Assembly (NCBI GenBank): GCA_010672925.1
Contig: JAAHFP010000059.1
Span: forward strand, 1-33,656
Direction: 5' to 3'
From: Symploca sp. SIO1C2
Lineage (GTDB): Bacteria > Cyanobacteriota > Cyanobacteriia > Cyanobacteriales > Coleofasciculaceae
DNA: 33,656 nucleotides
The translations under genes were made by a program, and so were the position numbers. Of the stretch, positions 11,774 to 32,262 are shown one piece after another. A model generated the notes under the pieces. That model was not told the origin of the DNA, searched no databases, and worked only from the letters and a program-made list of their open reading frames with translations. Numbering within the stretch: the first letter of the stretch is position 1; each line of letters begins with the position of its first letter.

Positions 11774-11895
11774 TCAAGTTCGGATAATCACTTATAATTC
11801 CCTTCTTCCTTGCAACCTTCTTTCTTTCCTTCTGCCCTCTGCCTTCTGCCCTCTGCCTTATTGCAACCGAAGTGTAAGTATTCAACCGAACTTGA
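11774..11895 (+). mobile_element. MITE-like element, copy 1 (left border of the 20-kb block)
   Basis: 122 bp, beginning TCAAGTTCGG and ending CCGAACTTGA, thus with 10-bp terminal inverted repeats. The interior contains heptamer-rich sequence (CTGCCTTCTGCCCTC). It has no room for a transposase. A second copy, same length and about 95 percent alike by eye, lies inverted at 32141-32262. The flank TA at the right (GATATAAG) is compatible with TA target duplication, but this is uncertain. Confidence 0.7.
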
Positions 11896-11924
11896 TATAA
11901 GACATTCTTAGGTACAGTAAGTTA

Positions 11925-11964
11925 ACAAGGGGCTTAAGCCCCTTGTCCTAATCACCTTGGCGGT
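11925..11964. repeat. Insertion-sequence end remnant with perfect 22-bp palindrome
   Basis: Positions 11932-11964 repeat the last 33 bp of the insertion-sequence end found at 179-211 with two differences. Upstream bases create a perfect palindrome at 11925-11946 (arm ACAAGGGGCTT). It lies 8 bases beyond the stop codon of the methyltransferase gene, read from the minus strand, so it may also serve as its 3' hairpin. There is no clear T-run. Confidence 0.55.
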
Positions 11965-11971
11965 TGCTGTA

Positions 11972-13609
11972 CTAAACCAGGATCAATCGCATTGAATCCC
12001 CTATTTTCTTCCGCATCGATCGCGCTGCTTCCATAGACGGATCGACCTCCAAAGCCTTATCTAGCTGTTCGATAGCTTGATCCAACTGTCCGAGGCGATA
12101 GTAGCATTTTCCCAGATTGTAGAGCGTATTGGCACTAGCACCGTACAGCATCAGAGAGTATTGAAGATAGAGTGAGGCTTCCCGATAATATGTCATTTTA
12201 TAGAGCAACCTTGCCAGGTGAAATGCCAAATCATTCTGTTCGCCAATGGGATAGTAGGTGTCCCAAATGCATTCGATTGCTTGATATAGTTCTTGCTGAA
12301 GGGTTTCGGATGCAGTGTCTAGATGTTGTATCAAGGAGGGAAAACAGCCAAGGAAGATATTGGCATCCCAGCGACTTGAGCGCAGCAAAGCTAAAATCTG
12401 GGGAAGCGTGAGGGTATCGTAATGTTTCTCGATCGCTTTTTTCAGGGTAAAAAAATCGTCTGGTCCGAGTTGTTCGATATTTTCGGTAAATGCCAGTCGC
12501 GTTTCTACGCAGTCTCTGAAAGGAAAGCCTAACAAAAAAGCACAGATGTTGAGGCTGGCATGACGATGAGCCACATTGAGAAATTGACCGCCGACTTGGA
12601 GAAAATACCGACCGATCGCATGGTAATTTACCATGAGTGAAAAACAATGTCCATGTCGTGTTAGAGATGGATGATGGCGATTCAGGAGTGCCTGTTCGTG
12701 GCTGTGTCCTTTGTCTGCGGAAATCAACAGCAAGCGATCGCCTGAGAGGTAGCGCAAATTACGAATACATTTGAGGGCAACGCTGGGAAATAAAACTGTG
12801 GTATCTTGCAGGCGTTGACGGTAGTTTTCGAGGATTTTGTTGAAGTTGGGGTCTTCGTAGTAGTTGGAAGAGATGGGATGGTCTTCAAAGTTAATCTCAA
12901 CCTGATTGATTAACTTGGGATCGTTAAGAGCTGATGTTTGTTGAGAGGGAATTAGGGTAACTAAGCTCTCATATAACCGTCGGTTGCGAACCGAAAATGC
13001 ATCGGAAGGGATGCTATCGAGCACATAGTTGGCAAGAACAATTAGGGGATTTTTCAGAGTTGCGGCAGAGAGGATATAGCCACCACGGTCGAGGGTGATT
13101 TGGCGATCGCGTTCCATATCGAAACGGGCAAAATCGAGAACACCACTGCGGACAAATGGGTAGAGAAAGGGATGCGATCGCCAAAATTCTAAGTTGTGAT
13201 CGGTAAAATCCGTCATTACGTATTTGACGGAAATATGTTGAAGAGGGGAGCGATGGAAGAACTCGAAGAATTTCTTGAGAAAATGATAGGCAAAGCGACC
13301 TGATCCGGCTCCGAGTTCCATAATATAGATGGGCTGCTCTGTATTGAGACCCTGGGCATGGCAATCTCGCAGAAAACCGAAAATAACTTTGGCATAGGCC
13401 CTGGCAATAAAGGGGTTGCTGGTAATGTAATGGGGAACGGTACCTTGGTTCCAAGCTTCAACCCCTTGGTGATCAAAAAAGTTGCGTTGGAACCTCCACA
13501 GCAGAGATTTTGAGAGCTGTTGGTTTTGCTCTAAGGTGTTGCTAAGCTGATTGCGGATCGTTCTCATTGTGCCAAAAATACCGTTTCTTGTGAAAAAGAC
13601 ATTGAACAT
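11972..13609 (-). CDS. MidA/NDUFAF7-like SAM-dependent methyltransferase with TPR tail
   Basis: A 545-residue protein. The methyltransferase domain (about 55-360) has the SAM motif I ELGAGSG at 98-104 after a beta strand (PIYIM), an acidic strand end (YVMTDFTDHNLEFW) and a post-IV segment LANYVLDSIPSDAF. That segment lines up with the NEFFDALP block of the MidA/NDUFAF7 family (DUF185), whose mitochondrial member methylates an arginine of a complex I subunit. The C-terminal region (about 450-535) is helical and ends with a good tetratricopeptide unit (LYNLGKCYYRLGQLDQAIEQLDKALEVDP) for protein contacts. It is the last gene of the minus-strand cluster and directly follows the PAD gene. Arginine as its target is inferred from family resemblance and context, not proven. 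ATG 13609 is taken; ATG 13567 is possible. Confidence 0.65.
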   Translation of the reverse strand: MFNVFFTRNGIFGTMRTIRNQLSNTLEQNQQLSKSLLWRFQRNFFDHQGVEAWNQGTVPHYITSNPFIARAYAKVIFGFLRDCHAQGLNTEQPIYIMELGAGSGRFAYHFLKKFFEFFHRSPLQHISVKYVMTDFTDHNLEFWRSHPFLYPFVRSGVLDFARFDMERDRQITLDRGGYILSAATLKNPLIVLANYVLDSIPSDAFSVRNRRLYESLVTLIPSQQTSALNDPKLINQVEINFEDHPISSNYYEDPNFNKILENYRQRLQDTTVLFPSVALKCIRNLRYLSGDRLLLISADKGHSHEQALLNRHHPSLTRHGHCFSLMVNYHAIGRYFLQVGGQFLNVAHRHASLNICAFLLGFPFRDCVETRLAFTENIEQLGPDDFFTLKKAIEKHYDTLTLPQILALLRSSRWDANIFLGCFPSLIQHLDTASETLQQELYQAIECIWDTYYPIGEQNDLAFHLARLLYKMTYYREASLYLQYSLMLYGASANTLYNLGKCYYRLGQLDQAIEQLDKALEVDPSMEAARSMRKKIGDSMRLILV

Positions 13610-13621
13610 GAATAGTAGGTA

Positions 13622-13670
13622 AAGGTTGGGTTACTCTTCAAGAAGCAAACTAAGTCGCCCCAACCCAACC
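13622..13670. repeat. Stem-loop between the PAD and methyltransferase genes
   Basis: The arm AGGTTGGGTT (13622-13631) is perfectly complementary to AACCCAACCT (13661-13670), giving a 10-bp stem with a 29-base loop in the 96-base gap. It may adjust expression of the downstream methyltransferase gene, or be a dispersed repeat. Confidence 0.45.
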
Positions 13671-13705
13671 TATAGTGAGCAATCACACTCAACTCTATGA
13701 GCAAA

Positions 13706-16700
13706 TTATTTGGATAATTCCCACCATTGAGCATTTTTTGCAACAGGTTGACGCAGAGCATTTGTTGCACAGTGAACTTCTCCACCTGCTGAATGGCAAA
13801 AATCCCAAGCATCAATTGACGAACTTTTAAATCCAAGTTCTGCGAGTATGGCGAACATGTACTGTTCAAATACATCTTCATTTTGTTGTACCGTGAATTC
13901 GATATTGTTCGGTGAAGCCCACGGTTTTTTGTCATCTACAAATTTTGTGTTTATTTTAAATTTTTTCTTTTTCTCTTTCTCTTTATCATTTGTGCTCAAG
14001 CTTGGTCCATAAGGCTTAGGAAAAATACAATATCCATTAACAACCAACATGTTTACCATATTGGAAGTAAGAGCTGTAGCTCTTTTGCTTTTTCCATCCT
14101 TCTCAAAGATCACAGGAATAGGTACTATAGTTAGGAGTTTTTTGTCAATTTCTTTCCTAAGTTTTTTTACCATTTCACTTATTTTTGAATTAACTTCATT
14201 TTCGTTGTATTTTTTAATATCAGAGAATTTTTTTCCATGTTTATCGATCCCCTTCAAAAAATCAGATACTTTGAGTTTTGATGTAATTGTGTTTCCATCC
14301 CACTTGAATTTTCGTTCTTTCATGAATTCTGCATTTGGGTCATTTTTTAGAGTTTCAGTCATTATTTTAATAGCAAGATCTGGACTAGCAACACAGGCAA
14401 TCAACTTATCTTTTCCTGGTAGGAAGCATATCATCTCATCAACATGACCCACACCCAACCAACTTGCATCCAATGTAAAAGGTTTTTGTACTTTTTGTGC
14501 TTTCAAAAAATTCTCATAATCTTCAAAGAAATTGTCTTGATTTCTATTTTTTTCTTCAGTTTCTATGTTTCCTTTTGAGTAGTAAATTCTTCCCCAGGGA
14601 TATCCTTTAAAAGGAGGGGTGACTTCGAGATTTCCGAAAGACATAGTAGAGACATCTCGATTAGCCTTACTCGTAAAATGTTCAGCAGATATCTCATTAG
14701 GGAAACGGTATTTTAATTTGTCATAATTCCAGCGTTTCTGAGGTGAACGAAGGCTTGAAGTATGTATTTTTTTACCTGGCATATAAGAATAGCCAATTTC
14801 CACAGCATCCTGAGTAAATCCATTGGATACGTCTAGGATAGAGTCAACCGGGATTTCTTTTAACTCAATTTCAGAGTCAGCATGACTAAGTATCTTAGAA
14901 AGTTCCTGAATGAATTTTATATTTGCTTTATGTCGGATGATTTTATTTTTGTTACCTTGATTTTTATTTTTACTGTCGTTTTCAAGTTTGATTTCGCCTA
15001 ATTTATCATTTTTCCACTCAATTTCTTGTTCTGATTGAGAAGGATTAACTATATTTGCGAGATCTTGCAATTTACAGCAGTACACTTGTTTTGTAGGTAA
15101 TGAAACATCAGCCATCATCCAAGGTGCTACCATAATCTGAGCTGTTTGATGATTTTTCGTAGTCCCATTAACTATCGGTATGAATATTAACTGAATTGGA
15201 TTGTCATCTTTTTTGCTCATATTATAGCGCTTAGCTGCCATACCCAAAACTATACCACTTTTGGGAATAGTATCTAATGTATATTGGTAATTTTTTCCAT
15301 TATCATCTATTTTTGGTTCTGGAAGTTTTTTGGCATCAGAATCGATGCCGTCGTAGATTTGGATGCGATCATGATCCGCTATACTCACTTCAAGAATTCC
15401 TTCAAGTGTTGGCTCTTTTTCACTATCTTCATTATTGAAACGCGGATAGAAAACTAGGGGTGCAAACGGTGATTTAATTGTACTAATTATTGGTTCATCA
15501 GATTTGTGTTCATCATTGTCATCATCATTGTCATCATTATTGTCATCATTGTTATCATTGTTATCGAAAGCTAAACCCTGGTAGAGGATAATCGCTCCTT
15601 TACCATTTTCGCCCCAAGTCCACTTATTGAGATCATTGCCTGAGACTAGCTTGCTACTTAGTTGCTTAGCATCACCGTCTCGCTTTCCTGTTCGATTTGC
15701 ATCCAAATACATATCAATAGTTTCTACCCCCCCAAGTTGACTCGCGTAATGTTTAGAGCCAATTCCGCTTCCATATTCCAAACCCTCAGCCAATTCTATG
15801 GCATCAGTAGTTTCCTCATCCATCATCCGGTCAAATTCGGCAAACTGCTGGGATAGTCCCACCTCCATTGCTCTTGCCTGCGGGTGTGGTGCTTCAGGGG
15901 GAACTACTTCTACAGGAGCGTAATGAGCGGCTTCCAACTTTGACGGGGATTGCTCCTCATCAATTTTCTGGTCGAAGTCTTGGAAAGTCGGCTCAAGTTC
16001 CAACGCTTCCCAGTCTTCTTGGCTGAGATGTTCGTCTTCCCGACTCTGGCGTAGCGATTGCAGTTCCTCACGAATGGCTTTTATTTGATCTGCAATTGCT
16101 TCTGTATTTCCCTTTGGCTGCTGCTGTTTCTGCCACTGCAATTGCTTAATTTCGTTGCGAATATCCTGAAGTCGATCCCCTAGGACTTCAGAGTCAGGAG
16201 AAGATGGCGCTGTTGAGGCTGCTGGTTGCTCGAGCGATCGCACTTTCTGGCGAAGGACTTCCATTTCCTTAGCAAGACTGTCGTCATGAGATGAAGTTTC
16301 TTTGGGAGACTCGGCTGCATAAGAAACTTGTTGCTCCGGTTCAAAAGAATGGGTCGCCTCGAAAGGTACGCTTCCTGTTGCCATTTCTTTTGTATAGTCT
16401 TTCCCAGAACTAGCTGTGGTATAGTCCTCATCCCAGGGACTAGCTTCGGTATAGTCTTCATCCCAGGAACTAGCTTTAGTGTAGTTTTCTTCTTGAACAA
16501 CAATGGGTTCGTTGAAATCGAAAGCCTGAGCCTCCATTGGGGAGTTATCCTCTTCGGCAGTGACCATTTCAATGGGGCTGCCATCGTCAAAGGAACGGAT
16601 TTGAGGGGGGTGGTTTTGAGACTGGGTTGGTTGATTGGGTTCTGCGACTGATTGGTCGAGATCGAACAAGAAACCTGAACCCGACGGCGAGGGGGGTGAG

Positions 16701-16873
16701 GGATGATTTCGGGGCTGGAGTGGTTGATTGGGTTTTCCGACTGCTTGGTCGAGATTGAACAAGGAACCTGAACCTGAGGTTGAGGATTCGGTTGGAGGGG
16801 GAGGAGACTGACGCTCACTTTCCAGTTGTTGATCAAGCTCGAAAAGTCGGTTGGTGGATTTAGGGTTTTTCAT
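13706..16873 (-). CDS. Protein-arginine deiminase (PAD) with disordered, motif-bearing N-terminal extension
   Basis: A 1055-residue protein predicted to convert peptidyl-arginine to citrulline with calcium. A PAD_M domain starts near 385 (LDANRTGK, NKWTWGENGKGAIIL; compare human PAD4 DADRTGK and TWTWGPCGQGAILL). A full PAD_C domain follows. The catalytic residues are present: D689 in TQDAVEIGY, H810 and D812 in WLGVGHVDEM, C1035 in GEVHCATN. The D-to-H spacing of 121 equals that of PAD4 350 to 471. Ligands matching PAD4 calcium site 1 (Q349, E353, E411) are kept as Q688, E692 and E750, whereas site 2 ligands appear replaced (A690, R709, K713). No PAD_N domain is seen. Instead residues 1-375 are disordered, with three LF-x-LDQ motifs (10-17, 38-45, 69-76), WDEDYT repeats, a coiled coil (about 200-285) and two FDQ/FDR motifs (300, 347). 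Confidence 0.9.
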   Translation of the reverse strand: MKNPKSTNRLFELDQQLESERQSPPPPTESSTSGSGSLFNLDQAVGKPNQPLQPRNHPSPPSPSGSGFLFDLDQSVAEPNQPTQSQNHPPQIRSFDDGSPIEMVTAEEDNSPMEAQAFDFNEPIVVQEENYTKASSWDEDYTEASPWDEDYTTASSGKDYTKEMATGSVPFEATHSFEPEQQVSYAAESPKETSSHDDSLAKEMEVLRQKVRSLEQPAASTAPSSPDSEVLGDRLQDIRNEIKQLQWQKQQQPKGNTEAIADQIKAIREELQSLRQSREDEHLSQEDWEALELEPTFQDFDQKIDEEQSPSKLEAAHYAPVEVVPPEAPHPQARAMEVGLSQQFAEFDRMMDEETTDAIELAEGLEYGSGIGSKHYASQLGGVETIDMYLDANRTGKRDGDAKQLSSKLVSGNDLNKWTWGENGKGAIILYQGLAFDNNDNNDDNNDDNDDDNDEHKSDEPIISTIKSPFAPLVFYPRFNNEDSEKEPTLEGILEVSIADHDRIQIYDGIDSDAKKLPEPKIDDNGKNYQYTLDTIPKSGIVLGMAAKRYNMSKKDDNPIQLIFIPIVNGTTKNHQTAQIMVAPWMMADVSLPTKQVYCCKLQDLANIVNPSQSEQEIEWKNDKLGEIKLENDSKNKNQGNKNKIIRHKANIKFIQELSKILSHADSEIELKEIPVDSILDVSNGFTQDAVEIGYSYMPGKKIHTSSLRSPQKRWNYDKLKYRFPNEISAEHFTSKANRDVSTMSFGNLEVTPPFKGYPWGRIYYSKGNIETEEKNRNQDNFFEDYENFLKAQKVQKPFTLDASWLGVGHVDEMICFLPGKDKLIACVASPDLAIKIMTETLKNDPNAEFMKERKFKWDGNTITSKLKVSDFLKGIDKHGKKFSDIKKYNENEVNSKISEMVKKLRKEIDKKLLTIVPIPVIFEKDGKSKRATALTSNMVNMLVVNGYCIFPKPYGPSLSTNDKEKEKKKKFKINTKFVDDKKPWASPNNIEFTVQQNEDVFEQYMFAILAELGFKSSSIDAWDFCHSAGGEVHCATNALRQPVAKNAQWWELSK
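15505..15567 (-). repeat. Trinucleotide (GAT/AAT) tract coding for an Asp/Asn run in the PAD gene
   Basis: On the plus strand the tract is made of repeated ATC/ATT triplets. It encodes about 20 residues, nearly all Asp or Asn, at residues 437-456. In PAD4 the corresponding place after the QGAILL strand is the acidic loop that binds further calcium ions, so this run may keep that role with a simplified sequence. The tract should be prone to length change by slippage. Confidence 0.7.
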
Positions 16874-16991
16874 GATTGTTACTTCTCGGTTTAAACTAGT
16901 GACATATAGCGCGTAGCGCTATTCAAAATTCAAAATTAGACTCTTGACGTGGTTTCAGGCTTTATTAATGTCCTAACCTAAGTGCGTAGTC

Positions 16992-18845: not shown

Positions 18846-19595
18846 TCAAGAATGTGACTTTAAAGTTAAACTAATAACGGCGTAGTGATCGAGGGCGACT
18901 TCGAGCTTTCCCGGCTGATTTTTTAGTTGCTCCTGATTAATTTTGAGTTCGATTTTGTTTTCTCCTGCTGCCATAACAGGAACTCTTTTTCCGTCGAGAA
19001 CTGCCACTGGAAACTCTCCATCACTGGGAGAGAGCATCAAGTTTTTGCCTTCTAAAACTAAGACGCTTTCGTTGTAGATTGTAGTAAACTTGGCATGAGA
19101 AACTAAGGGTGAGTTCTGACGGCGGTGGGCTTGGTTTAATACGCGATCGAGGGCTTGGCGATCGAGTTGTTCTTCTGTATGGGCATCAAGATCGATACCT
19201 CGTTCTTCCTCCACCTGAAGCAAATCTTGGGCTGAGCGGATTCCCAATTTTTCTAGGGCTTGGCGCGTCGCTTCTGGTAAGTCCGTATCTTCGATAGCGA
19301 TATCGTCGCGACTGATGGGTTGAGTCACTTCTTGGATTTGGTGATCGCGAATAGAACCCAGTTGCAAAGTCATTTTAGATGCACCTGCTTCTCCCGGTTT
19401 TGCGGTGGTAAATTTGATATGCCCGCTTTGGTATTCGGGAAAGAGTTGCAAGTCTAAAGCCATATCTCTAACCATGTAAGTCAGCTTGCGATTAGCTCCT
19501 TTTACCGATAGGGTATCTTGAGCGCGATCGAGTTCGTAAATCAGGGCGTCGAGAAATGTGCTCAAGTGCCAGGAATGGTTAGGTCTAGTCACCAT
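18846..19595 (-). CDS. Unknown protein: helix-strand N-terminal domain, HhH-like middle, Ig-like C-terminus
   Basis: A 249-residue soluble protein. The start at ATG 19595 has a strong ribosome binding site (GGAGGT, five bases upstream) and overlaps the end of the preceding gene by 11 bases, so the two are translationally coupled. Residues 10-85 show an amphipathic helix (FLDALIYELDRAQ) followed by strands (YMVRDMALDLQL, IKFTT, MTLQLG), an arrangement resembling small trypco2/DUF2589-type domains of bacterial conflict systems; this is a pattern resemblance only. Residues about 108-130 (LPEATRQALEKLGIRSAQDLL) look like a helix-hairpin-helix. The last about 80 residues form beta strands like an Ig/TIG fold. 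Function unknown; likely an adaptor. Confidence 0.65.
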   Translation of the reverse strand: MVTRPNHSWHLSTFLDALIYELDRAQDTLSVKGANRKLTYMVRDMALDLQLFPEYQSGHIKFTTAKPGEAGASKMTLQLGSIRDHQIQEVTQPISRDDIAIEDTDLPEATRQALEKLGIRSAQDLLQVEEERGIDLDAHTEEQLDRQALDRVLNQAHRRQNSPLVSHAKFTTIYNESVLVLEGKNLMLSPSDGEFPVAVLDGKRVPVMAAGENKIELKINQEQLKNQPGKLEVALDHYAVISLTLKSHS

Positions 19596-19884
19596 GATCA
19601 ACCTCCAAACGGAGCTTGAGGCGGTGAAACACCGGCATAATTGTGGTTTCTGTAGTTTGGGTGGGGGCAGAGCCGTTTAAGGAAAGTTTGCCCGTTTCGT
19701 CGGCTTGGATTAGTAATTCTAAGGGCATTTCTAGTTTTACTGCTTCTACATGCATGGTCGAACCTGTTTGAGGTTCTGCGAGGATTTCGTCCCAATCTGT
19801 GAGCTGTCCTACCACTTCCGCTAAGGGTGAGTGGAGGGTTTGTTGGTTAGGTTGAGAAGTGTTGGCGGGCATGGCTTTGGTCAT
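19585..19884 (-). CDS. Small unknown protein with beta-strand core
   Basis: A 99-residue soluble protein with ATG at 19884. After a polar N-terminus comes a short helix (LAEVVGQLTDWDEIL) and then strands (VEAVKLEMPLELLIQA, FHRLKLRLEV), with a Thr-rich loop between. This helix-plus-strands layout resembles the N-terminal domain of the downstream partner at 18846-19595, with which it overlaps. The pair may form a heterodimer. It lies 39 bases after the hydrolase gene. No family recognised. Confidence 0.6.
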   Translation of the reverse strand: MTKAMPANTSQPNQQTLHSPLAEVVGQLTDWDEILAEPQTGSTMHVEAVKLEMPLELLIQADETGKLSLNGSAPTQTTETTIMPVFHRLKLRLEVDHGD

Positions 19885-23285: not shown

Positions 23286-25274
23286 TTAGTATGTGTTTGA
23301 CGAACTCGTGCCTATAAAGTGAGCAACCCTCGGAATGGGAAAACAAACAGTGCGATCGCTCAATTCCAAAACGTGACCATTAGCATCGCTATCCATCACC
23401 TGTTTGAGCACGACTCGCCGCAAATCTACCTCCGGATATACCCAAAGAGTGGCGTTATCTCCCTCATCTCCTTCAAACTCCACCTGAGTCCGTGCTAGTT
23501 GATGGAAACTATCGCGAAACTCGCAGCAACACAATGCCGCCATCTCCTCGTCGTCAAGGCGGGGTTTATCAGAAATCCAAGCCAATAAACGCTCTAGCTG
23601 CTTTGGACTCAGCACCATACCCGTTTTCAACTTGCCAGATTGGTCGCCTCTGTGCTGATCATCCATGTGGAGCATGGTTTCCATCCGGGCATTATTTCGC
23701 TCCTCTGGCTCCAAAACATAGTAGTACTTGCAGTCTAGATCAATAGTCTGGCCATCTTCTGCAAAATCTCCTTGCCAAACCTTATGCCAGTAGGGACGAT
23801 ACTCTTTGGGGTCGTTGAGGGGAATCGTTTCTTCTACACCTTCTAGGCGATCAAAGATATAGTCTCCCACCAAAGTCACCAAAACCGCCGTACTGGTTCC
23901 CAAGCGTTTTTTGTTGCCTGTGTGACTGGAGTGGGCTGTCCAGGTCAACACTGCACAGATCAGATATTCTTCGTTAGGTTTGAGCGATCGCAACTGTCCT
24001 CGACTCAACCGGAAACTACCATAAACCGGCCCTGAGTGTAAGTTTTCCACCGGATATTTTTCTTCAGCTAACACTTCCAAAGTTTCCGGATTCTTCACTA
24101 ACAGTCGCACTGTTCCCCGGCTAATGGGACGGGGGGTATCTAATATCAAGGGAAAGGTAAGATCTTCATCAATGCGATACAACACCCGCGAAGCTCCCCC
24201 CGTTATTTGGGGGTGAATACTGGCAAAGTGGAGTTGCACTGTTTCCTGGCGGTGGTATTCTGGTTCCCGACCTTTGAGACCATTGCGCAGGGGAAGAAGA
24301 TCGGGATCGTCATTGTGAAGTTCGTCGGCGATTGCCTGGATAAAGCCGGGAAAATGCTTGCCCACTTCTAAGGCTCCGTGAGCAATCGTCCCGAGTAAAA
24401 CCCGCGATCTCATCGGCCCGGACGAAATTGTCCGCACGGTTTCTGGGTGCAAGGAACGCCCCAACAATGGCATTAAAGCTGGCATCTGGTCAAACACTCC
24501 TGACGGGAGCATTGCTTTGCCAGGAAAAGGGGAATAGCTTTCAAAACTCAGGGCTTTGGCAGTACTTGGTGCTGCCTTTGCCTTCTGAAGTTGAGAGATT
24601 AAGCTCACAATTTGATTGAGAGTATCGGGGTTTTGCAGCTGCGCCTTAATCTGTTGCGAGTGTCCCCCCGTCCCTGGGAATAAGGTATCGAGTAATTTAG
24701 TCACCCCCGTAACAGCAACTCCTGCTTCAGGGCCTAAAACGCTAGTTAGGATGGGGGCGGCAACCGGTGCGACAGCTTTGACTGCTTTAACAACACCAGA
24801 AGCTACTTTGCCGACAACTTTGCCAATGCTGCTGAACAATCCCATCTCAGTGCTGTAGGATTGTTGGTAGCTAAAGGGCTGGGTAGGGACTAGTTGATTG
24901 TCCATAACACTTGGGGAAGAAAACGATAGGGAAATGGGTTTAGAGTTAGAGGTGATGGGAACCGGAATTATTGGGGAAAGAGCTGGGCCATTGCGCTGGC
25001 GATCGCGAAAGCTATACAGTTGCAAGTAACGGTAGCGGAAATCGAAGCGATCGCTCGGTATTTCTACAAAAGTACGACCCAGGGTTTCCGGTGGTAAAGG
25101 ACCGAAAACGGGAGAAACAAATCGAGCATTTTCCAAAAATGTCAGACCGTTTCGAGTAAAGGTTTTATCATCCCCAATGCTATAAGCGTAGAACCGATTC
25201 ACTGTGCCAATATCAATGTGAAAACGGGTTGTTTTGCCTTGATTAGCTTTAAATTGGATGATTGCCAGTGCCAT
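23286..25274 (-). CDS. Large unknown protein with amphipathic Gly/Ala-rich segment and beta domains
   Basis: A 662-residue protein. The first about 105 residues look beta-rich (IIQFKANQGKTTRFHIDIG...). Residues about 145-205 form a Gly/Ala/Val-rich amphipathic stretch (GLFSSIGKVVGKVASGVVKA, then VAPVAAPILTSVLG) that resembles membrane-active helices of viral capsid-penetration proteins and pore formers. Further on is an Ig-like section (RGTVRLLVKNPETLEVLAEE... GSFRLSRGQLRSLKPNEEYLICAVLTW) and a helical/beta C-terminus. No signal peptide or classic transmembrane helix. No ribosome binding site is seen before ATG 25274, where a repeat-rich gap begins. Family not recognised; a structural or membrane-disrupting role is possible. 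Confidence 0.6.
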   Translation of the reverse strand: MALAIIQFKANQGKTTRFHIDIGTVNRFYAYSIGDDKTFTRNGLTFLENARFVSPVFGPLPPETLGRTFVEIPSDRFDFRYRYLQLYSFRDRQRNGPALSPIIPVPITSNSKPISLSFSSPSVMDNQLVPTQPFSYQQSYSTEMGLFSSIGKVVGKVASGVVKAVKAVAPVAAPILTSVLGPEAGVAVTGVTKLLDTLFPGTGGHSQQIKAQLQNPDTLNQIVSLISQLQKAKAAPSTAKALSFESYSPFPGKAMLPSGVFDQMPALMPLLGRSLHPETVRTISSGPMRSRVLLGTIAHGALEVGKHFPGFIQAIADELHNDDPDLLPLRNGLKGREPEYHRQETVQLHFASIHPQITGGASRVLYRIDEDLTFPLILDTPRPISRGTVRLLVKNPETLEVLAEEKYPVENLHSGPVYGSFRLSRGQLRSLKPNEEYLICAVLTWTAHSSHTGNKKRLGTSTAVLVTLVGDYIFDRLEGVEETIPLNDPKEYRPYWHKVWQGDFAEDGQTIDLDCKYYYVLEPEERNNARMETMLHMDDQHRGDQSGKLKTGMVLSPKQLERLLAWISDKPRLDDEEMAALCCCEFRDSFHQLARTQVEFEGDEGDNATLWVYPEVDLRRVVLKQVMDSDANGHVLELSDRTVCFPIPRVAHFIGTSSSNTY

Positions 25275-25304
25275 TTTTTAGGTGGTAGGTAGGACTTGCT
25301 GAAT

Positions 25305-25422: not shown

Positions 25423-26490
25423 TTAAGATTGGTCTCCGTTTTGAGTTTGGTCGGTTTTTGGTTTGACTGAACCTGGGTTATCGCGGTTCATCAAAATATT
25501 TTGGAAGTTATCCAAAGTAAAGTAATCGGTTTTGAAGTTGATTTCTACTTCACCGTGTACTTGAGTGCTAGATGTAGTTGTGGCAGCACTTTGCACTTGG
25601 GCTGTCGAAACTGAAATTTTTGTATTTCTCTTACTATTGCCATAGCCGCCTCCAAACATACCGAGGAAGCCACCCATGCCAATTGTGCGACTGCGAAGTT
25701 CCTGCTTATTTTGTTGGGCAGCATCGCCTTTGCGAATTTGCTCTTGAGCAGTAATTTGGAAATCTAGGCTGGCTTTAACTTTTCCATTATCAACGACTAA
25801 GCGCGTCACCCCCATAAGCAACATTTCTTCCAACAACTGTTGGTGTTGCCTTACCAATTGCAATTTAGCTTGTAAGATTTCGCCGCGAATATCTTCGCTG
25901 TTAGTATCGACAGCGTTACCGTTGGCATCTCCCAGGCTAATTTGGCTACTAGTATTGCTAGTACTGCCCCCATCCAAGCTGCCAAGATTGCCAGAACCAA
26001 GTAAGTTTCCACCTAAATTACTACTACCAATAATTTGGAAGCGGTCAGGTTGATTTTCTGCTAAAAAGGCATAAGCAGTGGCATCATCAACAGTATCAAT
26101 AAACTTGCTGGCCGGTTGGGTAATGCGATCAACTAAGTCAGCGTAGGAGTCCATTTGCTCCTGAGTGACTTGTAAGTTGGCGTCGAATACCCCTTTGAGC
26201 AAGTCTTTGACGAATTGAGGAAAATCGACTTGGCGCATCGTCCTGCCAGCAATTGCGCCTTGTTGATCGATGCGGCGATTTAAGTGGCGATTATCATTAA
26301 TTAAGTCTCCAGCAGCCATGGCATTAACCAATTGTTTCTGTCGCGACAATTTTTCAGTTAATTCGCCAACGCGATGTTTGTAAAGCGCAAACTGTTCCTT
26401 TTCGCGTTTCTTACGAAATCCCGGGTCTCTACCCAGTTCTCTTCGAGCCATCGCCCGCGCTTGTTCATCAATGCTTAACTCGTTCGACAT
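25423..26490 (-). CDS. Unknown protein, helical N-terminus and beta C-terminus
   Basis: A 355-residue soluble, highly charged protein. The N-terminal about 155 residues are helical (RRELGRDPGFRKKREKEQF; KHRVGELTEKLSRQKQLV). A Gly/Ser/Asn linker is followed by a helix (LQAKLQLVRQHQQLLEEMLLMG) and paired strands VTRLVVDNGKVKASLDFQI and VHGEVEINFKTDYF separated by a Gly-rich loop (GMGGFLGMFGGGYG). The helix-then-strand C-terminal part resembles DUF2589-like domains in general plan. Possibly oligomeric. It sits between two other unknown large proteins in the same transcription unit. No function assigned. Confidence 0.6.
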   Translation of the reverse strand: MSNELSIDEQARAMARRELGRDPGFRKKREKEQFALYKHRVGELTEKLSRQKQLVNAMAAGDLINDNRHLNRRIDQQGAIAGRTMRQVDFPQFVKDLLKGVFDANLQVTQEQMDSYADLVDRITQPASKFIDTVDDATAYAFLAENQPDRFQIIGSSNLGGNLLGSGNLGSLDGGSTSNTSSQISLGDANGNAVDTNSEDIRGEILQAKLQLVRQHQQLLEEMLLMGVTRLVVDNGKVKASLDFQITAQEQIRKGDAAQQNKQELRSRTIGMGGFLGMFGGGYGNSKRNTKISVSTAQVQSAATTTSSTQVHGEVEINFKTDYFTLDNFQNILMNRDNPGSVKPKTDQTQNGDQS

Positions 26491-26714
26491 AGTTTGTTTA
26501 TCCCTAAAGTTTACTCGGGTAATCTCGACTGTGCATCAACTCTTTCAATATTTGTGTGCCTCAAATATTGCTTGAAGTAACAAGAATTAATTAACAAGTA
26601 GTAAGCAACAATCAAAGTAATAGGCACAAAAATCAATTCAAGTAGTAAATCTTACTTATTACTCTTGTTTCTGGATTTTTTGTGGACTGAAGTCCTACTA
26701 CTGCTTATTACTTA
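26491..26714. other. 224-base gap with AAGTAACAAG-like repeats
   Basis: AT-rich sequence with degenerate units like those at 25305 (26573-26600). No gene is seen. A possible place for an internal promoter or RNA processing site. Confidence 0.35.
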
Positions 26715-28505
26715 TTACCACCGATCAAACTCTTCGTTACTACCAACGCCAGTGCTAGCCAAGTTATCGAATTCAAAATCGTCGTCATCCATATTGCCCT
26801 GTTTAATGTCGTAAGCGACAAAGTTTGCTCCGCCATTACCCATACGTGGGCTATTAGAAGGATGTCTAGAGGGTAAAGATCTTGGTGAGTGATTGTAGTG
26901 CTTACCGTTGAGAGTTTCCCGCGCTAAAACCCAGGCTTCTACAGAAGTGAGCAGTTGATCAAACTGGCTAGATTTAACAGCATTCTCGTTAAAGTTGGCG
27001 ATCCATTCAAAGATTTTGTTCCCATCTACAGCTAGGGTTTTAATAGTTTCGGTATTGGGAGCTTTACCGAATTCCTCTTTAGCAATGCGTTCGATAGTAT
27101 TCCACAGACTTTCACGTTTACCGCCGTAATAGCTACGAACATCGTCACTATTAACAATTTCCATCGCTTCTTGGAGGTGGTTGTAATCTTCTGTGACTTG
27201 CAAATGAGCCATACCCGTCATATAGTCACTGAGATTGTATTGCAAATCTTCTGTAACTTCATAGATGCGAGTGTTTCTCACACCGCTTTCTTGCCAGGTA
27301 TTCCAGTAAGCTTTGCGTTCGGTTTTGTGGATATATCTCATTACCTCGGAAATCAACTGTTCCCACAAAGTGGTAAAATCACTGTTGACTGCCATGCGTG
27401 AGAGCACTTGTCCATTACCTTTGTTGAGAACCCGCTTGTAGAGCATAGCTCGTTCTTCGGGGGTTGAGCGCTCGCTGCGACGCTTATGAAACCGGTACAA
27501 TGCTGAAGCTGTATCACCATCGGGAATGTCAAGCAACCCACTCGCCCAACGCAAAACTAGAGCATTCGCTATATCGAAAACCTGCATCACCTCACCAACA
27601 CAATAGATGTAGTCGAGGGCTCCAGCAGCCAAGATGTTATTTTTAGATATCCGTTCATTCTCGATAGATTCAAAGCGATCAACGGAAAAATCCCAGGTAT
27701 TTTCAAAGTCTTTAGAAGAATAAACGAGATCGATCGGATCTTCAGAATCGCTAGCCCCGGTTTGGGCGTAGTTATAGGCTAGGATAAAATATTTATCGTA
27801 ATCGCCTTCGTTATAACTGTCCTCATCAATCGTCACCTCAAGTTCAACGAGACGATCCAGCATTTTCTCTTTAATGCTGTCCGTGAACTTACTCGAATCG
27901 ATATCTGTTTGCCTTCCAATAAACTCATCAAGATAATAGTACAAAAGGCCGCGTTCGTTAATCGTGTCGAGTATTTCTTCGACTGCGGGTTCAACTTCCC
28001 CTGATATAATTGGAAGCCCACTGTCTTCAATCAAATCATCGAGTATCTGCCACTTATTGTCCCCCAGATCAATAGAGCTGATGTGTTTGTCCAGGCAAAC
28101 TAGACCGAACATTTGTCCGTAAAAACGAGTTAGTGGGTTTTCTTGGACGTAGCGCAAGACTGCGTTGTACATTGAGTCTTCGTCAATCGAACCCTCTTGG
28201 TACGCCAAGTAAATCATCCCCGCGTAGATAGTTGTACTAGAGAGCAACAGTTGTACAACATAGTCTAGAGAAGTATCGTTAAGATTCTCAGTGACTTGGG
28301 ATACGACGCCAGTCAATGATTCTGAGATGATGACTCCCTTAGCACCATCGACTGTCGTGATACTAACGGTGGAGAATGTCTCCGTGTAGAATGTGGTTTC
28401 GTAGTAAGATTCTACTGCTTCTAGTGCCTGGGTTGCGTAATCATCAAGGGTGACGCTTGGGGCATTAATTGCTAAAACGGCATCGACAGAACTGGTTGTT
28501 ACCAT
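26715..28505 (-). CDS. Large unknown acidic protein ending in an EFDRW motif
   Basis: A 596-residue soluble acidic protein with a strong ribosome binding site (AAGGAG, eight bases before ATG 28505). The sequence is mostly helical after a Thr/Ser-rich start (YYETTFYTETFSTVSITT). A disordered tail from about 545 (Asn/Ser/Arg-rich, then DDDDFEFDNLAS) ends exactly in NEEFDRW. The tail motif matches the FDEFDR motifs in the membrane scaffold and PAD of the same cluster, suggesting a common binding partner. No known domain recognised. Possibly the main structural or regulatory subunit of the system. Confidence 0.6.
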   Translation of the reverse strand: MVTTSSVDAVLAINAPSVTLDDYATQALEAVESYYETTFYTETFSTVSITTVDGAKGVIISESLTGVVSQVTENLNDTSLDYVVQLLLSSTTIYAGMIYLAYQEGSIDEDSMYNAVLRYVQENPLTRFYGQMFGLVCLDKHISSIDLGDNKWQILDDLIEDSGLPIISGEVEPAVEEILDTINERGLLYYYLDEFIGRQTDIDSSKFTDSIKEKMLDRLVELEVTIDEDSYNEGDYDKYFILAYNYAQTGASDSEDPIDLVYSSKDFENTWDFSVDRFESIENERISKNNILAAGALDYIYCVGEVMQVFDIANALVLRWASGLLDIPDGDTASALYRFHKRRSERSTPEERAMLYKRVLNKGNGQVLSRMAVNSDFTTLWEQLISEVMRYIHKTERKAYWNTWQESGVRNTRIYEVTEDLQYNLSDYMTGMAHLQVTEDYNHLQEAMEIVNSDDVRSYYGGKRESLWNTIERIAKEEFGKAPNTETIKTLAVDGNKIFEWIANFNENAVKSSQFDQLLTSVEAWVLARETLNGKHYNHSPRSLPSRHPSNSPRMGNGGANFVAYDIKQGNMDDDDFEFDNLASTGVGSNEEFDRW

Positions 28506-28585
28506 GACTTTGCTCCTTTAGTTAGGTGTGCGATTGGCTGAATTCTTGCTTAAAATTGAGATTTTCTACACTGCTAGTTATCCGT

Positions 28586-30115
28586 CTAGGATTCGCTGCC
28601 GGTAAGACTAGCAACTACCCCGATGACGCTAATAGGACTCTCTGCTGTTGACTCTTCATCTTCGTCGGTGTTGCCATCAGAAGCGACAACGTCGGCAGCC
28701 ACTTCGAGGAGGCTACTGCTGGTGTCACTAATACTGTTAGTCGTAGTAGTGGTAGTATCAGAGGCTTCCAACACAGTTTCAGTGGATTGGGAAACTTTGT
28801 AATCGATGTACCGCTTCAAAATCTGGGCGAGTTCGTCATGGTCTTGAGGTGCCTCTCGCAGCTGAGCGATCCAAATGTCATCTCCTCCCTGAGAGGTCTC
28901 TATCCCAGATATATTACCAGCTGTGATGCCCGTTAAGTATAGACTGCCGTTGGAACCGACGCTCATATTGTAGGCAGCATCGCTATTATCGTCAGACGAG
29001 TTGATTTGTTTGAGCCAAACTTGCTCTCCCGTATAGGCATTGTACTTGGCAACCAGAGCATCACGGGAAGTGACTGCCTCTAAATCACCGAACTGACCGT
29101 CAGTCCATCCTCCGATATACACACCGCCGTTGTTATCGACCGAAATTCCCCGCATCCAGACATCAAAGGTGTCAGCGACATCGCCAAATTGGTCGAGCCA
29201 AACCTGTTCTCCCGTACTTGTCTGAAATTTTGCGATCCATGCCTGATAGTTATTGTACGATGTGGCCAAGTCAAATTCTTTTAAGTTACCATAGGTAAAA
29301 CCAGTCGCGTAAACGCCACCACTGTCATCGACGGCAACGCCTATAGCTCTTTCTTGGTTGTCGCCTGTGCTACTCAATGACTGGCTCCACTGATACACCC
29401 CATCACTGCTGTATTTGGTAATCCAAATATCCTCTAGGTCTTCAGATTCGACTGTGCTATAGCCAACTGCATAGACATTACCGCTGACATCGACTGTGAG
29501 ATCCCTACTGTAGCTTTCACTCCCATCGCTACCGAATTGCTCAATCCAATTGAGCTCCGGGTCTGTACTCAATTTGGCAATCCAAGCATCTAATGTGCCA
29601 GTAGTCTCCTTCGGATCGCCATCTGGTGAGAGCATCGAGCCTGCCGTAAAGCCAGTCACATACAAATAACCGTTGCCATCTTTCCCAATAGAGTGGGGTC
29701 TTTGAGCAGCATCATCTTTAGACTCAAAGTTGTAAGTCCATTCTTGATCTCCGGTGTCAAGGTTGAATTTGATTACCGAAGTTTTTCCGGTCGCATCTGC
29801 CTCTGTCAGATCATCTGTACCTATTTGAATCAGCACGTAAACGCCATCATCGTCTACAGCAAGATCGCGACCCATGGAATTTTCTTCAGATTCTTCCCCA
29901 TGGCTGAGTTGTTGGAGCCAGATTTGCTCTCCCGATTTGGCATAGAATTTACCAACCCAGGGATTCCAATAGCTACTCGCGCTACCGTCGGACAAGTCAC
30001 CCCCCACATATCCACAGACATAGATGTACTTGTTGTCGCTATCCATAACAACTGCAAAACTTTTATCGTCTTCAGATGTTCCCAGTTGTTGAAGCCAATC
30101 GATTTCTGCTTGCAT
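28586..30115 (-). CDS. SBBP-repeat beta-propeller-like protein
   Basis: A 509-residue protein with GAGGT before ATG 30115. It has about seven repeats of 45-60 residues, each with W-(L/I)-x-Q-(F/L)-G near the start, a run of charged residues with Asp, and a (V/I)Y-(V/A/I)-(T/G/V)-G-(Y/F/W)-(T/V) strand: the bacterial SBBP repeat, expected to fold as a beta propeller. There is no signal peptide, unusual for SBBP proteins, which are mostly secreted. The C-terminal about 75 residues are Thr/Ser/acidic and disordered. Only three bases separate its start from the stop of the subtilase, so the two are co-translated; propeller plus protease may form a recognition-and-cleavage pair. Confidence 0.85.
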   Translation of the reverse strand: MQAEIDWLQQLGTSEDDKSFAVVMDSDNKYIYVCGYVGGDLSDGSASSYWNPWVGKFYAKSGEQIWLQQLSHGEESEENSMGRDLAVDDDGVYVLIQIGTDDLTEADATGKTSVIKFNLDTGDQEWTYNFESKDDAAQRPHSIGKDGNGYLYVTGFTAGSMLSPDGDPKETTGTLDAWIAKLSTDPELNWIEQFGSDGSESYSRDLTVDVSGNVYAVGYSTVESEDLEDIWITKYSSDGVYQWSQSLSSTGDNQERAIGVAVDDSGGVYATGFTYGNLKEFDLATSYNNYQAWIAKFQTSTGEQVWLDQFGDVADTFDVWMRGISVDNNGGVYIGGWTDGQFGDLEAVTSRDALVAKYNAYTGEQVWLKQINSSDDNSDAAYNMSVGSNGSLYLTGITAGNISGIETSQGGDDIWIAQLREAPQDHDELAQILKRYIDYKVSQSTETVLEASDTTTTTTNSISDTSSSLLEVAADVVASDGNTDEDEESTAESPISVIGVVASLTGSES

Positions 30116-30118
30116 GGT

Positions 30119-31420
30119 TTACCTCAGTTTGTAGTCTAATAACCGCAACGCATCGAGGAGATTGAGCTTGCCAAACCCTGCTTTGCGATGTTTGAAGTGT
30201 GGATCTACCTTATCGGCTGTTTGTTGGAGCAAATATTTAATGGCTTGATCGCCCAATTCTATTCCTGCCTTAATCAAGGCATAAGATTTCAGCAACGCCA
30301 CTGCTCCAGCTACGAAAGGTGCAGCGTGAGAAGTTCCCGTAGAAAAGGCATAATTGTTTTCCAGATAACTACTGTAAATATCAGTTCCCGGTGCAACGAA
30401 ATCCACTTGTTTTCCGTAGGTAGAAAAGGGAGCAACTCGATTAAGTTCATCGATTGCGCCGACAGTAATTACATGAGGTAAAGCACCTGGATAGTAAGAC
30501 TCTTCCTTACCATCGTTTCCCGAGGCTGCTACTAACGTGACACCTTTGCGTTGGGCATAATCTACAACTTCTTGATGGGGCAATCCACCTCCCGTACTTT
30601 TAACACCCAAACTCATGTTAATGACGTCTGCACCATGATCAATTGCCCATTTAATCCCGACATTGATATTATCAATTAACCCTGAACCGACGCGCTTATT
30701 GCCTTTTTTCATTGCCCCCAAAACCCGCACCGGCAAAACTCTACATTGGGGAACCACACCCGGTGGCATTTGCATACCTTTGGCTGCGATAATCCCAGCA
30801 ACATGAGTTCCGTGTCCGACTTCATCATCCGGCTTGTCATCAAACCCTAAAAAGTCACCGACAAATTGCCCCGCACCGTTGATAATATCGACGAAATCGT
30901 ATCCCGGTAGAAGTGCATCTGCCAATTCCGGATGATCGAGATCGATACCAGTATCGAGAACCGCCACCGTTACGCGATGGTCTCCACTGGTAAACAATTC
31001 GTGGGCGCCGGGAACCCCAATTGTTTGACGCGATCGCGCCCCAGTTCCCACACTCATTTGCGTTGCTTGCAATTCCGGCAAGTCCGCATAACCAATGTCC
31101 CCAATGGTAGCGGATTCCACAATTGGAAGTTGGGATAAATCCCGCACAAGTGCAGAGGGCACCTTCCGATTGTGCTGTGCAATAAGACGGTAGATACGAT
31201 GGAATCCACAGTCGCTTTCGCTATGACTCCATTGGCGATCAGCACTATCGTATTCTCTTGTCACCCAAACGGGAAATTTGTAGCGGTCTAAAACTGCATC
31301 CACATCAGGATGTAATTGCGTTTTTACTAACTCCCTCTTGACAATAAATTGTTGCCAGTGAGGAATAATTATATTATTTGTAGACAGATGTTCTAGCTTC
31401 AGACGGATGTGCCATTTCAT
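30119..31420 (-). CDS. Subtilisin-like S8 serine protease, no signal peptide
   Basis: A 433-residue protein counted from ATG 31420, which has GGGAGG ten bases upstream; a TTG at 31447 is less likely. The catalytic triad is complete: D156 in VLDTGID, H203 in GHGTHVAGI, S364 in GTSHAAPF, with the oxyanion Asn in AASGND. About 140 residues precede the catalytic domain and may act as a prodomain or binding region. Typical secretion signals are absent, so it is probably cytosolic or exported by a non-Sec route. As first gene of the twelve-gene cluster it may process downstream proteins, for example by removing disordered extensions; that is inference. Confidence 0.93.
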   Translation of the reverse strand: MKWHIRLKLEHLSTNNIIIPHWQQFIVKRELVKTQLHPDVDAVLDRYKFPVWVTREYDSADRQWSHSESDCGFHRIYRLIAQHNRKVPSALVRDLSQLPIVESATIGDIGYADLPELQATQMSVGTGARSRQTIGVPGAHELFTSGDHRVTVAVLDTGIDLDHPELADALLPGYDFVDIINGAGQFVGDFLGFDDKPDDEVGHGTHVAGIIAAKGMQMPPGVVPQCRVLPVRVLGAMKKGNKRVGSGLIDNINVGIKWAIDHGADVINMSLGVKSTGGGLPHQEVVDYAQRKGVTLVAASGNDGKEESYYPGALPHVITVGAIDELNRVAPFSTYGKQVDFVAPGTDIYSSYLENNYAFSTGTSHAAPFVAGAVALLKSYALIKAGIELGDQAIKYLLQQTADKVDPHFKHRKAGFGKLNLLDALRLLDYKLR

Positions 31421-32140
31421 GGCGTCCCTGCCTCCCGTTTGGAACAATCTTTTTGAATTATGACACCATTATATTATTCGTTTTATGCACGTAATAATTT
31501 GTCATACATTATTGACAGTATTAGAGAGTTTAAAGCTTTATCAGGCAAGAGTTTTACATGATTTCACCAACATGTATTTCCCCTATTGCATTGTCTTTTT
31601 TTTGCATTAAATACCTAAAAAAAGAAACTTTTATGAAAGAATATCCTGTATTTTTAGGTTAGACAAGTACTTATATGCTTGTTTATAAATTAGCAAATAA
31701 TTATTACTATATATAGATTTTTCATATTAAATCCGCTTTGAATAACCCCGTTTTCAGCAAACCTCTAAATCTTTTATATACCGGCTATAGTGCGTCTCTA
31801 CAATGTGGACATAACGGGTTTGTTGATACCGGATTTGGTATTACTTAGGGCTTGCTGCATAAGTAGGTTAGCTATGCCAAACAAAGCTTTGATATCAATA
31901 ATTTTTTCCGAATAAACGCTGTGTCAAATTTCTTGACACCTAATACCTAAAACCCAATGGTGACAATTTGAAAGGTCGTGTGTTGTTTCAAGTACTATAT
32001 ATAGGGTTTGATAATTCAAAAAACGCTATATAAGTAAAAACCAAAGGGCTAAAAAAATTTATATTCTCAATTCGACCTTCGACCTTCCCTTGGCAACGAC
32101 ATTTTTGCTTTAACTTGTCACCAATGCCTCAAGCCTTATA
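31421..32140. other. 720-base AT-rich upstream region of the cluster
   Basis: No convincing gene in either strand. Very AT-rich, with partly degraded dispersed repeats: ACCGGATTTGGTATTA near 31828, resembling 11735-11751, and GGCTTGCTGCATAAGT near 31850, resembling 25292. These look like old element ends. The region must hold the main promoter for the minus-strand cluster. Confidence 0.5.
31468..31473 (-). promoter_or_regulatory. Possible -10 box for the cluster
   Basis: On the minus strand this is a perfect TATAAT, 48 bases before the subtilase start codon. A weak -35 candidate (TATTAC) lies 17 bases upstream of it. The surrounding AT-richness lowers the significance. Confidence 0.3.
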
Positions 32141-32262
32141 TCAAGTTCGGTTGAATACTTACACTTCGGTGGCAATAAGGCAGAGGGCAGAAGGCAGAGG
32201 GCAGAAGGGAAGAAAGAAGGTTGCAAGGGAGAAGGGAATTATAAGTGATTATCCGAACTTGA
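32141..32262 (-). mobile_element. MITE-like element, copy 2 (right border of the 20-kb block)
   Basis: 122 bp, the inverted counterpart of 11774-11895, with the same TCAAGTTCGG / CCGAACTTGA ends and the same interior heptamer-like GCAGAGGGCAGAAG stretch. Flanks read TTATA and TATTA, compatible with insertion at TA. It lies in front of the cluster, about 720 bases upstream of the subtilase. Confidence 0.7.

What the first reader, a model, noticed from the sequence alone, without database searches (positions are those of the whole stretch)
11774..32262. A 20-kb, twelve-gene one-strand island bordered by inverted MITE-like elements
Two 122-bp elements with identical ends enclose exactly the cluster of subtilase, propeller, unknown proteins, possible ART, hydrolase, scaffold, PAD and methyltransferase. 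All genes inside are on the minus strand, several with 3-40 base gaps or overlaps, while the flanks are ordinary. The combination of PAD, protease and lipase with shared linear motifs does not match a named system that I know. It could be a mobilised or invertible effector/conflict module.
Basis: partly seen in the sequence, partly recalled or inferred. Interest (0 to 1): 0.85.

Follow-up and report, generated by a model that had tools for sequence, protein, structure and literature searches.

The report
Modular tagged-toxin operon of cyanobacteria
A rare, scattered set of bacteria carries the same undescribed gene machine, a protease plus unfamiliar proteins with swappable toxin-like enzymes attached through shared tags, which may be a new kind of bacterial weapon or defence.

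Summary
The twelve-gene, one-strand cluster is real and far more than chance. The mini-element (MITE) borders are not special: at least 40 copies exist in this genome, and another inverted pair lies 20.8 kb apart. What matters is inside. A core occurs in one fixed order in 15 genomes of Cyanobacteria and Bacteroidota (one cut by a contig end), once on a plasmid: S8 protease, [slot A], u596, u355, u662, [slot B], u99, u251, [slot C]. Burkholderia carries a remote partial relative. The five u-families have no Pfam or NCBIfam match over a cut-off and no convincing PHROGs or PADLOC match. The slots hold exchangeable proteins. Slot-B proteins share a tag of about 25 residues that, across 12 whole genomes, gives strong hits only there; two lineages keep a tag-only mini-gene. 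The slot-C arginine deiminase joins a conserved front (76.5% identity to a same-genus genome) to a divergent catalytic domain (32.0%). Best reading: a protease-dependent system that docks swappable toxin-like enzymes on a membrane-bound scaffold. Whether cargo goes outward or is released inside is undecided. Conservation, tags and modularity are shown; mechanism is inferred.

The parts
30119..31447 (-). S8 subtilase, first gene of the core; catalytic D165, H215, S373 present
   Evidence: Pfam Peptidase_S8 178.1 bits; triad motifs; same position in 15 loci; 53-91% identity in the eight cyanobacterial and Bacteroidota loci, 39% in Burkholderia
28586..30115 (-). slot A: SBBP beta-propeller protein; it lacks the DNW motif seen in slot A of some other loci
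   Evidence: Pfam SBBP 69.8 bits; slot A holds LamG, PG-binding or coiled-coil proteins elsewhere and is empty in the Flavobacteriales
26715..28505 (-). core protein u596, signature family, predicted mostly helical (low-confidence model)
   Evidence: conserved in 15 loci and remotely in Burkholderia; no Pfam or NCBIfam match, PHROGs and PADLOC only E 0.22 and 0.037
25423..26490 (-). core protein u355; four paralogues in the Burkholderia locus
23286..25274 (-). core protein u662: N-terminal beta domain (1-108), middle region that is hydrophobic in several relatives, Ig-like domain about 345-470
21482..23230 (-). slot B cargo 1, ADP-ribosyltransferase-like by motif only (RxDxR at residue 241), with C-terminal tag
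   Evidence: tag; RxDxR motif matches the Tox-ART-RSE motif quoted in PMC3482391 (passage); no Pfam or PDB support
19924..21327 (-). slot B cargo 2, lipase-like alpha/beta hydrolase with C-terminal tag
   Evidence: LCAT 14.1 bits, below cut-off; HSMG motif; no PDB match; tag
19585..19884 (-). core protein u99
   Evidence: conserved in 14 loci (G870 cut before it); in Burkholderia by position and alignment only
18846..19601 (-). core protein u251: weakly Trypco2-like N-terminus, weakly TIG-like C-terminus
   Evidence: one match in the own genome
16992..18767 (-). slot C membrane scaffold: LEQ motifs, FDEFDR motifs, two C-terminal hydrophobic segments
13706..16873 (-). slot C cargo: N-terminal module (1-354) plus arginine deiminase domain with D689, H810, D812, C1035
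   Evidence: PF03068 173.6 bits; alignment to human PADs; conservation
11972..13609 (-). MidA-like methyltransferase with TPR repeats, last gene; found in 4 of the 15 loci
   Evidence: Methyltransf_28 35 bits and TPR; also in SIO2E6, SIO3C6 and G900
11774..11895 (+). dispersed 122-bp MITE-like repeat, not part of the system
32141..32262 (-). second copy of the dispersed repeat, not part of the system

Best explanation
The cluster encodes a modular cargo-docking system built around a subtilase. Shown: a constant core (S8 protease, u596, u355, u662, a tag peptide, u99, u251 and, in 13 of 15 loci, a module-bearing slot-C protein) stays in one order while toxin-like enzymes are swapped in and out. 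Slot-B enzymes carry a shared, mostly C-terminal tag; slot-C enzymes begin with a shared module; several scaffold proteins carry the same motifs plus hydrophobic segments. Inferred: the complex forms in the cytoplasm (no cluster protein shows an N-terminal hydrophobic segment), is tethered at the inner membrane by the motif proteins, loads enzymes through the tags, and the subtilase cuts or releases them. Inferred with less certainty: the loaded complex is deployed against other organisms, because accessory genes encode lectin-like, cell-wall-binding and wall-degrading proteins.
For: Fixed order in 15 loci over two phyla, plus a partial Burkholderia locus. Tag: 11 of 580 ORFs, all in slot B. 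Whole-genome search of 12 genomes: 12 hits at E<=1e-5 in 11 genomes, all in slot B; the twelfth genome, G870, is cut by a contig end inside slot B and has none; 3 of the 11 genomes gave no row to the profile. Tag-only ORFs of 57-60 codons in three Flavobacteriales and SIO2E9. Cassette swap: window and same-genus SIO2E6 are 83% and 88% identical on the two sides of slot B, with no DNA match (E<=1e-10, 90 bp or more) across the slot-B enzymes. Slot-C front 76.5% (241 of 315) against PAD domain 32.0% (125 of 391) identity. LEQ motif in 17 of 580 ORFs, 0 of 206 flanking and 0 of 179 control ORFs. Hydrophobic segments on scaffolds; none in the first 25 residues of 161 cluster ORFs by a simple hydropathy scan. 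LamG, PG-binding and SLH domains; multi-domain wall hydrolases.
Against: No channel, export ATPase, sheath or tube family was recognised. No signal-like segments, so a way out is unknown. The motif patterns were drawn from the same proteins they were counted in (only flank and control ORFs are independent); 12 of the 13 loci with the slot-C module were seeds of its profile. The Flavobacteriales lack slot A, the LEQ motif and hydrophobic scaffolds, and the window's own slot-A protein lacks the DNW motif, so tethering is not shown for every locus. Slot-B enzyme folds are motif readings; none passes a family cut-off. The Trypco2-like domain points equally to intracellular conflict systems. Both structure models are of low confidence.
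Confidence: 0.5

Rival explanations
1. An intracellular, protease-gated conflict or suicide system. Slot-A proteins sense an invader, u251 (Trypco2-like) couples to the subtilase, and cutting releases docked toxic enzymes inside the cell, as proposed for the VMAP systems.
For: Weak Trypco2 match of the Burkholderia u251 (16.6 bits, E 0.0098); a Trypco2 gene beside a subtilase (recognised by its motifs) in another cyanobacterium; no immunity genes recognised by Pfam and no signal-like segments; PMC7159879 passages describe constant protease plus variable effectors.
Against: Trypco2 score below the curated cut-off of 24.2, and no match in the other 8 of 9 u251 members scanned. No NTPase among the 12 window proteins by Pfam. 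Wall hydrolases and LamG, SLH and PG-binding accessories fit an outside target better.
Confidence: 0.3
2. A cell-surface or matrix assembly complex: protease, deiminase, transglutaminase-like and lipase-like enzymes modify envelope proteins of the producer rather than attack anyone.
For: SLH, LamG, SBBP and PG-binding accessories; PAD and transglutaminase-like enzymes can modify proteins without killing (general knowledge).
Against: Cassette exchange at slot B with a retained tag, and a divergent PAD domain behind a conserved front, look like conflict-driven diversification; slot-B enzymes differ widely between loci; patchy presence (10 of 388 genomes of the order full-length, own included).
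Confidence: 0.12
3. A MITE-bounded mobile or invertible island.
For: Two inverted copies frame the cluster.
Against: At least 40 copies in the genome and other pairs at like distance; no full-length copy on the sister-cluster stretches.
Confidence: 0.03

Closest known systems
Polymorphic toxin systems (PMC3482391; passages read)
   Same: conserved trafficking region joined to variable catalytic domains; toxin types of ART and papain/transglutaminase class
   Different: a mostly C-terminal tag with toxins fused in front of it, a dedicated set of unknown core proteins, no known leader domain, no immunity genes recognised
VMAP/Trypco peptidase conflict systems (PMC7159879; PMC10907252; passages read)
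   Same: protease plus a Trypco2-like adaptor plus variable effectors and sensors
   Different: no MoxR or vWA component found; S8 in place of trypsin; Trypco2 likeness below cut-off
Contractile injection systems (eCIS, T6SS; recalled)
   Same: parts list parallels them: cargo with docking tags, lectin-like and wall-lysing accessories, no Sec signals
   Different: no sheath, tube, baseplate or AAA ATPase found
Type IX secretion C-terminal domains (abstract starts in a search listing)
   Same: conserved C-terminal sorting sequence on varied cargo
   Different: tag of about 25 residues with no signal-like segment, in Cyanobacteria as well
Cyanobacterial PADI (PMC8826395; passages read)
   Same: PAD catalytic domain with conserved catalytic residues
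   Different: PAD sits behind a docking module in a multi-gene system; no PAD_N; PAD_M only 16.7 bits against a cut-off of 24.8

Membership tests
Protein-arginine deiminase (PF03068) | match over the curated cut-off and catalytic D, H, D, C | tested here: met
   173.6 bits against a cut-off of 25; D689, H810, D812, C1035 kept in 3 of 3 clusters with a PAD; residue roles recalled
Three-domain PADI | PAD_N and PAD_M domains | tested here: not met
   PAD_M 16.7 bits below 24.8, no PAD_N; PMC8826395 says cyanobacterial PAD_N is degenerate and missed by Pfam, so the PAD_N half is weak evidence
Polymorphic toxin | conserved N-terminal region, exchangeable C-terminal toxin domain | tested here: met
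   slot C only: 76.5% against 32.0% identity; other or no C-terminal domain in G749 and G772. Slot B is the reverse arrangement
Polymorphic toxin | adjacent immunity gene | tested here: inconclusive
   none recognised by Pfam in the window; unknown immunity families cannot be excluded
Polymorphic toxin | known secretion leader (PAAR, WXG, TPS, signal peptide) | tested here: not met
   Pfam on 12 window proteins; no N-terminal hydrophobic segment in 161 cluster ORFs (a hydropathy scan, not a signal-peptide predictor)
VMAP/Trypco conflict system | MoxR ATPase, vWA, VMAP components | tested here: not met
   none among the 12 window cluster proteins by Pfam
Trypco2 (PF19631) | score over 24.2 bits | tested here: not met
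   best 16.6 bits (Burkholderia u251), 1 of 9 members; none in the own genome
Contractile injection system | sheath, tube, baseplate, AAA ATPase | tested here: not met
   Pfam on 12 of 12 window cluster proteins; PHROGs on 10 core-family proteins, best E 0.004 to a family of unknown function
Type IX cargo | signal peptide plus T9SS CTD | tested here: not met
   NCBIfam on 10 of 12 window cluster proteins; no signal-like segment
MITE-bounded unit | elements specific to the unit's ends; shared in sister copies | tested here: not met

The most novel reading that the evidence does not exclude
A previously undescribed protein-delivery machine: u596, u355 and u662 form a particle or pore docked at the inner membrane, loaded through a tag and an N-terminal motif code with interchangeable enzymes (arginine deiminase, ADP-ribosyltransferase, proteases, lipases, wall hydrolases), and triggered by a subtilase.
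Probability: 0.3. Interest if true: 0.95.

Novelty: categorically new. Interest (0 to 1): 0.8.

Why it matters
It would add a system with its own cargo-tag code, spread over at least two and probably three phyla, whose constant parts other than the protease match no family over a cut-off in Pfam or NCBIfam and nothing convincing in PHROGs or PADLOC. It places a bacterial arginine deiminase in the position of swappable cargo, which gives a testable biological role for an enzyme type that animals are reported to have gained from cyanobacteria (PMC8826395, passages). The tag is short and specific, so it can be used to find cargo and could be tested as a docking handle.

Tried and rejected
MITE-bounded island: rejected. 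Clean empty site: not found; in same-genus G795 and SIO2E6 the two flanks lie on different contigs. Phage origin: no match of u596 or u662 in 50,697 phage records, none of u596, u251 or u355 in viral contigs. u99 as a second Trypco2: no similarity to u251 by profile comparison (low alignment depth). Structure of u596: pLDDT 44, not searched. Structure of u662: only residues 1-108 and about 345-470 usable; generic beta-sandwich hits, no function. Sequence searches of PDB for u596, u355, u662, the ART-like and the lipase-like protein gave nothing useful (the one low E-value for u596, 1e-4, was a chain named C3HR3_9r_shift4, by its name a designed protein). Pfam at loose limits for slot-B enzymes gave nothing over cut-offs. 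Literature: seven searches listed no paper that by title or abstract describes this gene set; most papers of subscription journals are not in the library, and bioRxiv itself is not held.

The short u596 relatives (13 genomes with 345-407-aa frames, plus one fragment) were not counted as members. In the 8 of 13 whose neighbours were clustered, they sit in a different operon with a protein family showing an HEVSH motif (family in 8 of 8 loci, motif seen in the two loci printed; metallopeptidase by recall). Nine such stretches served as control ORFs.

Full report
Observation. The window is G000:C201 of an 8.67-Mb genome; the nearest named relatives are Symploca MAGs. Twelve minus-strand genes fill 11972-31447, framed by two inverted copies of a 122-bp element at 98% identity. 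The element is a dispersed repeat: at least 40 copies (40 scored of 571 candidates), some pairs at similar distance, one of them inverted and 20.8 kb apart. On the other 23 contig stretches, sister clusters included, no full-length copy was found. I therefore set the borders aside.

Conserved core. u662 occurs in 2 of 386 phylum genomes (own and Myxacorys). A u596 profile gives 10 full-length hits in 388 genomes of the order, own genome included, and 1 of 296 in the phylum of the Flavobacteriales genome G388, that one being G388 itself. A pattern-based scan of 84,980 species genomes gave 7 loci: three Symploca, Myxacorys and three Flavobacteriales; it is not exhaustive, since one search found further genomes. 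Plasmid records gave Tolypothrix, Microchaete, Burkholderia and Paraburkholderia hits. Reading the neighbourhoods shows, on one strand and in one order, S8 - [A] - u596 - u355 - u662 - [B] - u99 - u251 - [C] in 15 loci: window, SIO2E6, SIO3C6, SIO2E9, Myxacorys, the Tolypothrix PCC 7712 plasmid, three Flavobacteriales, G749, G772, G959, G913, G900, and G870, which ends at its contig edge inside slot B. The Flavobacteriales have no slot A. Burkholderia pyrrocinia plasmid pBPJTT carries a rearranged, remote version with S8, u251, two u596 and four u355 homologues, a u99 by position and alignment, and no u662 found. In Paraburkholderia only a u596 relative was found.

What the core is. The subtilase has its catalytic triad. 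u596, u355, u662, u99 and u251 have no match over a curated cut-off in Pfam or NCBIfam; the best PHROGs match of ten core-family proteins is E 0.004 to a family of unknown function, the best PADLOC match of the five window proteins E 0.037. The Burkholderia u251 matches Trypco2 weakly (16.6 bits, cut-off 24.2), and 6 of 9 u251 members match TIG weakly (best E 6e-4). A true Trypco2 gene in another cyanobacterium, the only hit in 79 genomes, lies beside a subtilase that I recognised by its motifs, an independent S8-Trypco2 pairing. The u596 model is all helical but of low confidence. u662 has an N-terminal beta domain, a middle that is hydrophobic in five relatives (Myxacorys, Tolypothrix, G959, G870, G900), and an Ig-like domain with generic fold matches.

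Slot B and the tag. Slot-B proteins differ widely yet share a sequence, consensus LNGMKVIFDxxVxTYPVTLEPK, at the C-terminus (internal in G913). In 580 ORFs of 24 contigs the tag pattern occurs 11 times, all in slot B. A 40-position profile searched through 12 whole genomes gave 12 hits at E<=1e-5 in 11 genomes, all in slot B; the other six hits have E>0.2. Ten rows built the profile, so G772, G751 (SIO2E9) and G388 are the independent cases. In SIO2E9 and in three Flavobacteriales slot B is a tag-only ORF of 57-60 codons; in SIO2E9 it looks like the SIO3C6 protein with its enzyme missing. The tag is thus present in 14 of 14 loci with a complete slot B. Between the window and SIO2E6, DNA on the two sides of slot B is 83% and 88% identical, but the enzyme genes have no DNA match: a cassette exchange.

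Enzymes. Slot B holds in the window a lipase-like protein (LCAT below cut-off; HSMG motif) and a protein with the RxDxR motif that PMC3482391 gives for ART-RSE toxins (passage). Elsewhere I read papain-like (C58 below cut-off in G959) and transglutaminase-like proteins, the latter from recalled motifs only. PDB and Pfam searches do not confirm these folds.

Slot C. Proteins after u251 carry LEQ motifs (17 of 580 ORFs: 15 after u251, 2 inside u662 of G913 and G900; 0 of 206 flanking and 0 of 179 control ORFs; none in the Flavobacteriales cluster), AFD and FDEFD motifs (8 and 11 ORFs, all after u251), and a module found by profile in 13 of 15 loci, 12 of them seeds of that profile. The exceptions are Tolypothrix, where an IS701 transposase follows u251, and the truncated G870. 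In the window this front module leads a PAD domain with its four catalytic positions. PAD also occurs in SIO2E6 and SIO3C6. In G772 the front module stands without a PAD, and in G749 it leads a region with no match to the PAD protein. Front against catalytic identity to SIO2E6 is 76.5% against 32.0%; to SIO3C6, 65.0% against 42.4%. PAD as such is commoner than the system (25 of 386 genomes). In six other PAD loci read (of 24 other PAD-bearing genomes) no core protein matched except S8 in two, at 39% and 29%.

Location. By a simple hydropathy scan, motif-bearing slot-C proteins of the window, SIO2E6, SIO3C6, SIO2E9, G749, G772 and G913, and DNW-motif proteins of Myxacorys and G959, have hydrophobic segments behind the motifs; none of 161 cluster ORFs has one in the first 25 residues. 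No such scaffold was seen in the Flavobacteriales or G900. The Myxacorys protein continues into SLH domains. This suggests a cytoplasmic complex tethered to membrane and wall, at least in those loci. Accessories elsewhere are LamG (G913, G900), PG-binding (Tolypothrix, G959), a lysozyme-GH108-M15-amidase protein (the Flavobacteriales locus L076) and an amidase-C92-C70 protein (Burkholderia).

Interpretation. The order, tags and swaps are shown. That tags dock cargo, that the subtilase releases it, and that deployment is outward are inferences. Wall- and glycan-directed accessories favour outward deployment; the Trypco2-like domain, the lack of recognised immunity genes and the lack of export signals leave an internal conflict system open. 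I give the docking-and-deployment reading 0.5 and the internal reading 0.3.

Novelty. The toxins follow a known principle (polymorphic toxins) and the protease-adaptor idea is known (VMAP systems), but membership tests for both, and for contractile injection and type IX secretion, fail on defining parts. Seven literature searches listed no paper that by title or abstract describes this gene set; subscription journals are mostly outside the library. 'Categorically new' rests on unmatched sequence families; a remote structural relative could still be found, because no confident model of u596, u355 or whole u662 was obtained.

Noticed in passing
L123, L124, L125, L126, L127, L128, L129, L130: A second conserved operon holds a short u596 relative (363-386 aa in these 8 loci), a protein family with an HEVSH motif (family in 8 of 8), a weakly transthyretin-like protein family (7 of 8) and EYEFE-rich proteins; one of these matches the u662 profile (E 3e-4). 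It may be a sister system.
   Followed up: partly
window 19900-20010 and 21485-21595: The 111-nt direct repeat (76%) covers the DNA that encodes the two slot-B tags, a possible recombination seam.
   Followed up: partly
L072 6933-8264, 12050-13165, 18842-20098: IS605/TnpB-like genes sit inside the SIO3C6 cluster (Pfam for the first; the other two by look of the sequence).
   Followed up: no
L132 1-1950: A Trypco2 gene beside a subtilase in another cyanobacterium, followed by a 441-residue frame that was not studied.
   Followed up: partly
window 6075-8213: One protein joins a glycine-betaine-type binding domain (OpuAC) to a second binding domain with an ion-channel unit, which looks like an unusual fusion.
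   Followed up: no
window 52-181 and 33527-33656: The window ends lie in another pair of 130-nt inverted repeats, 97% complementary.
   Followed up: no
window 17582-17660 and 18092-18162: Octamer tandem repeats lie inside the scaffold gene and are translated as RGRGDAETR-like stretches.
   Followed up: no
L080 13560-14645, 20199-21572, 21576-22877, 24011-25465: Four u355 paralogues in one Burkholderia locus suggest an oligomer-forming subunit.
   Followed up: partly
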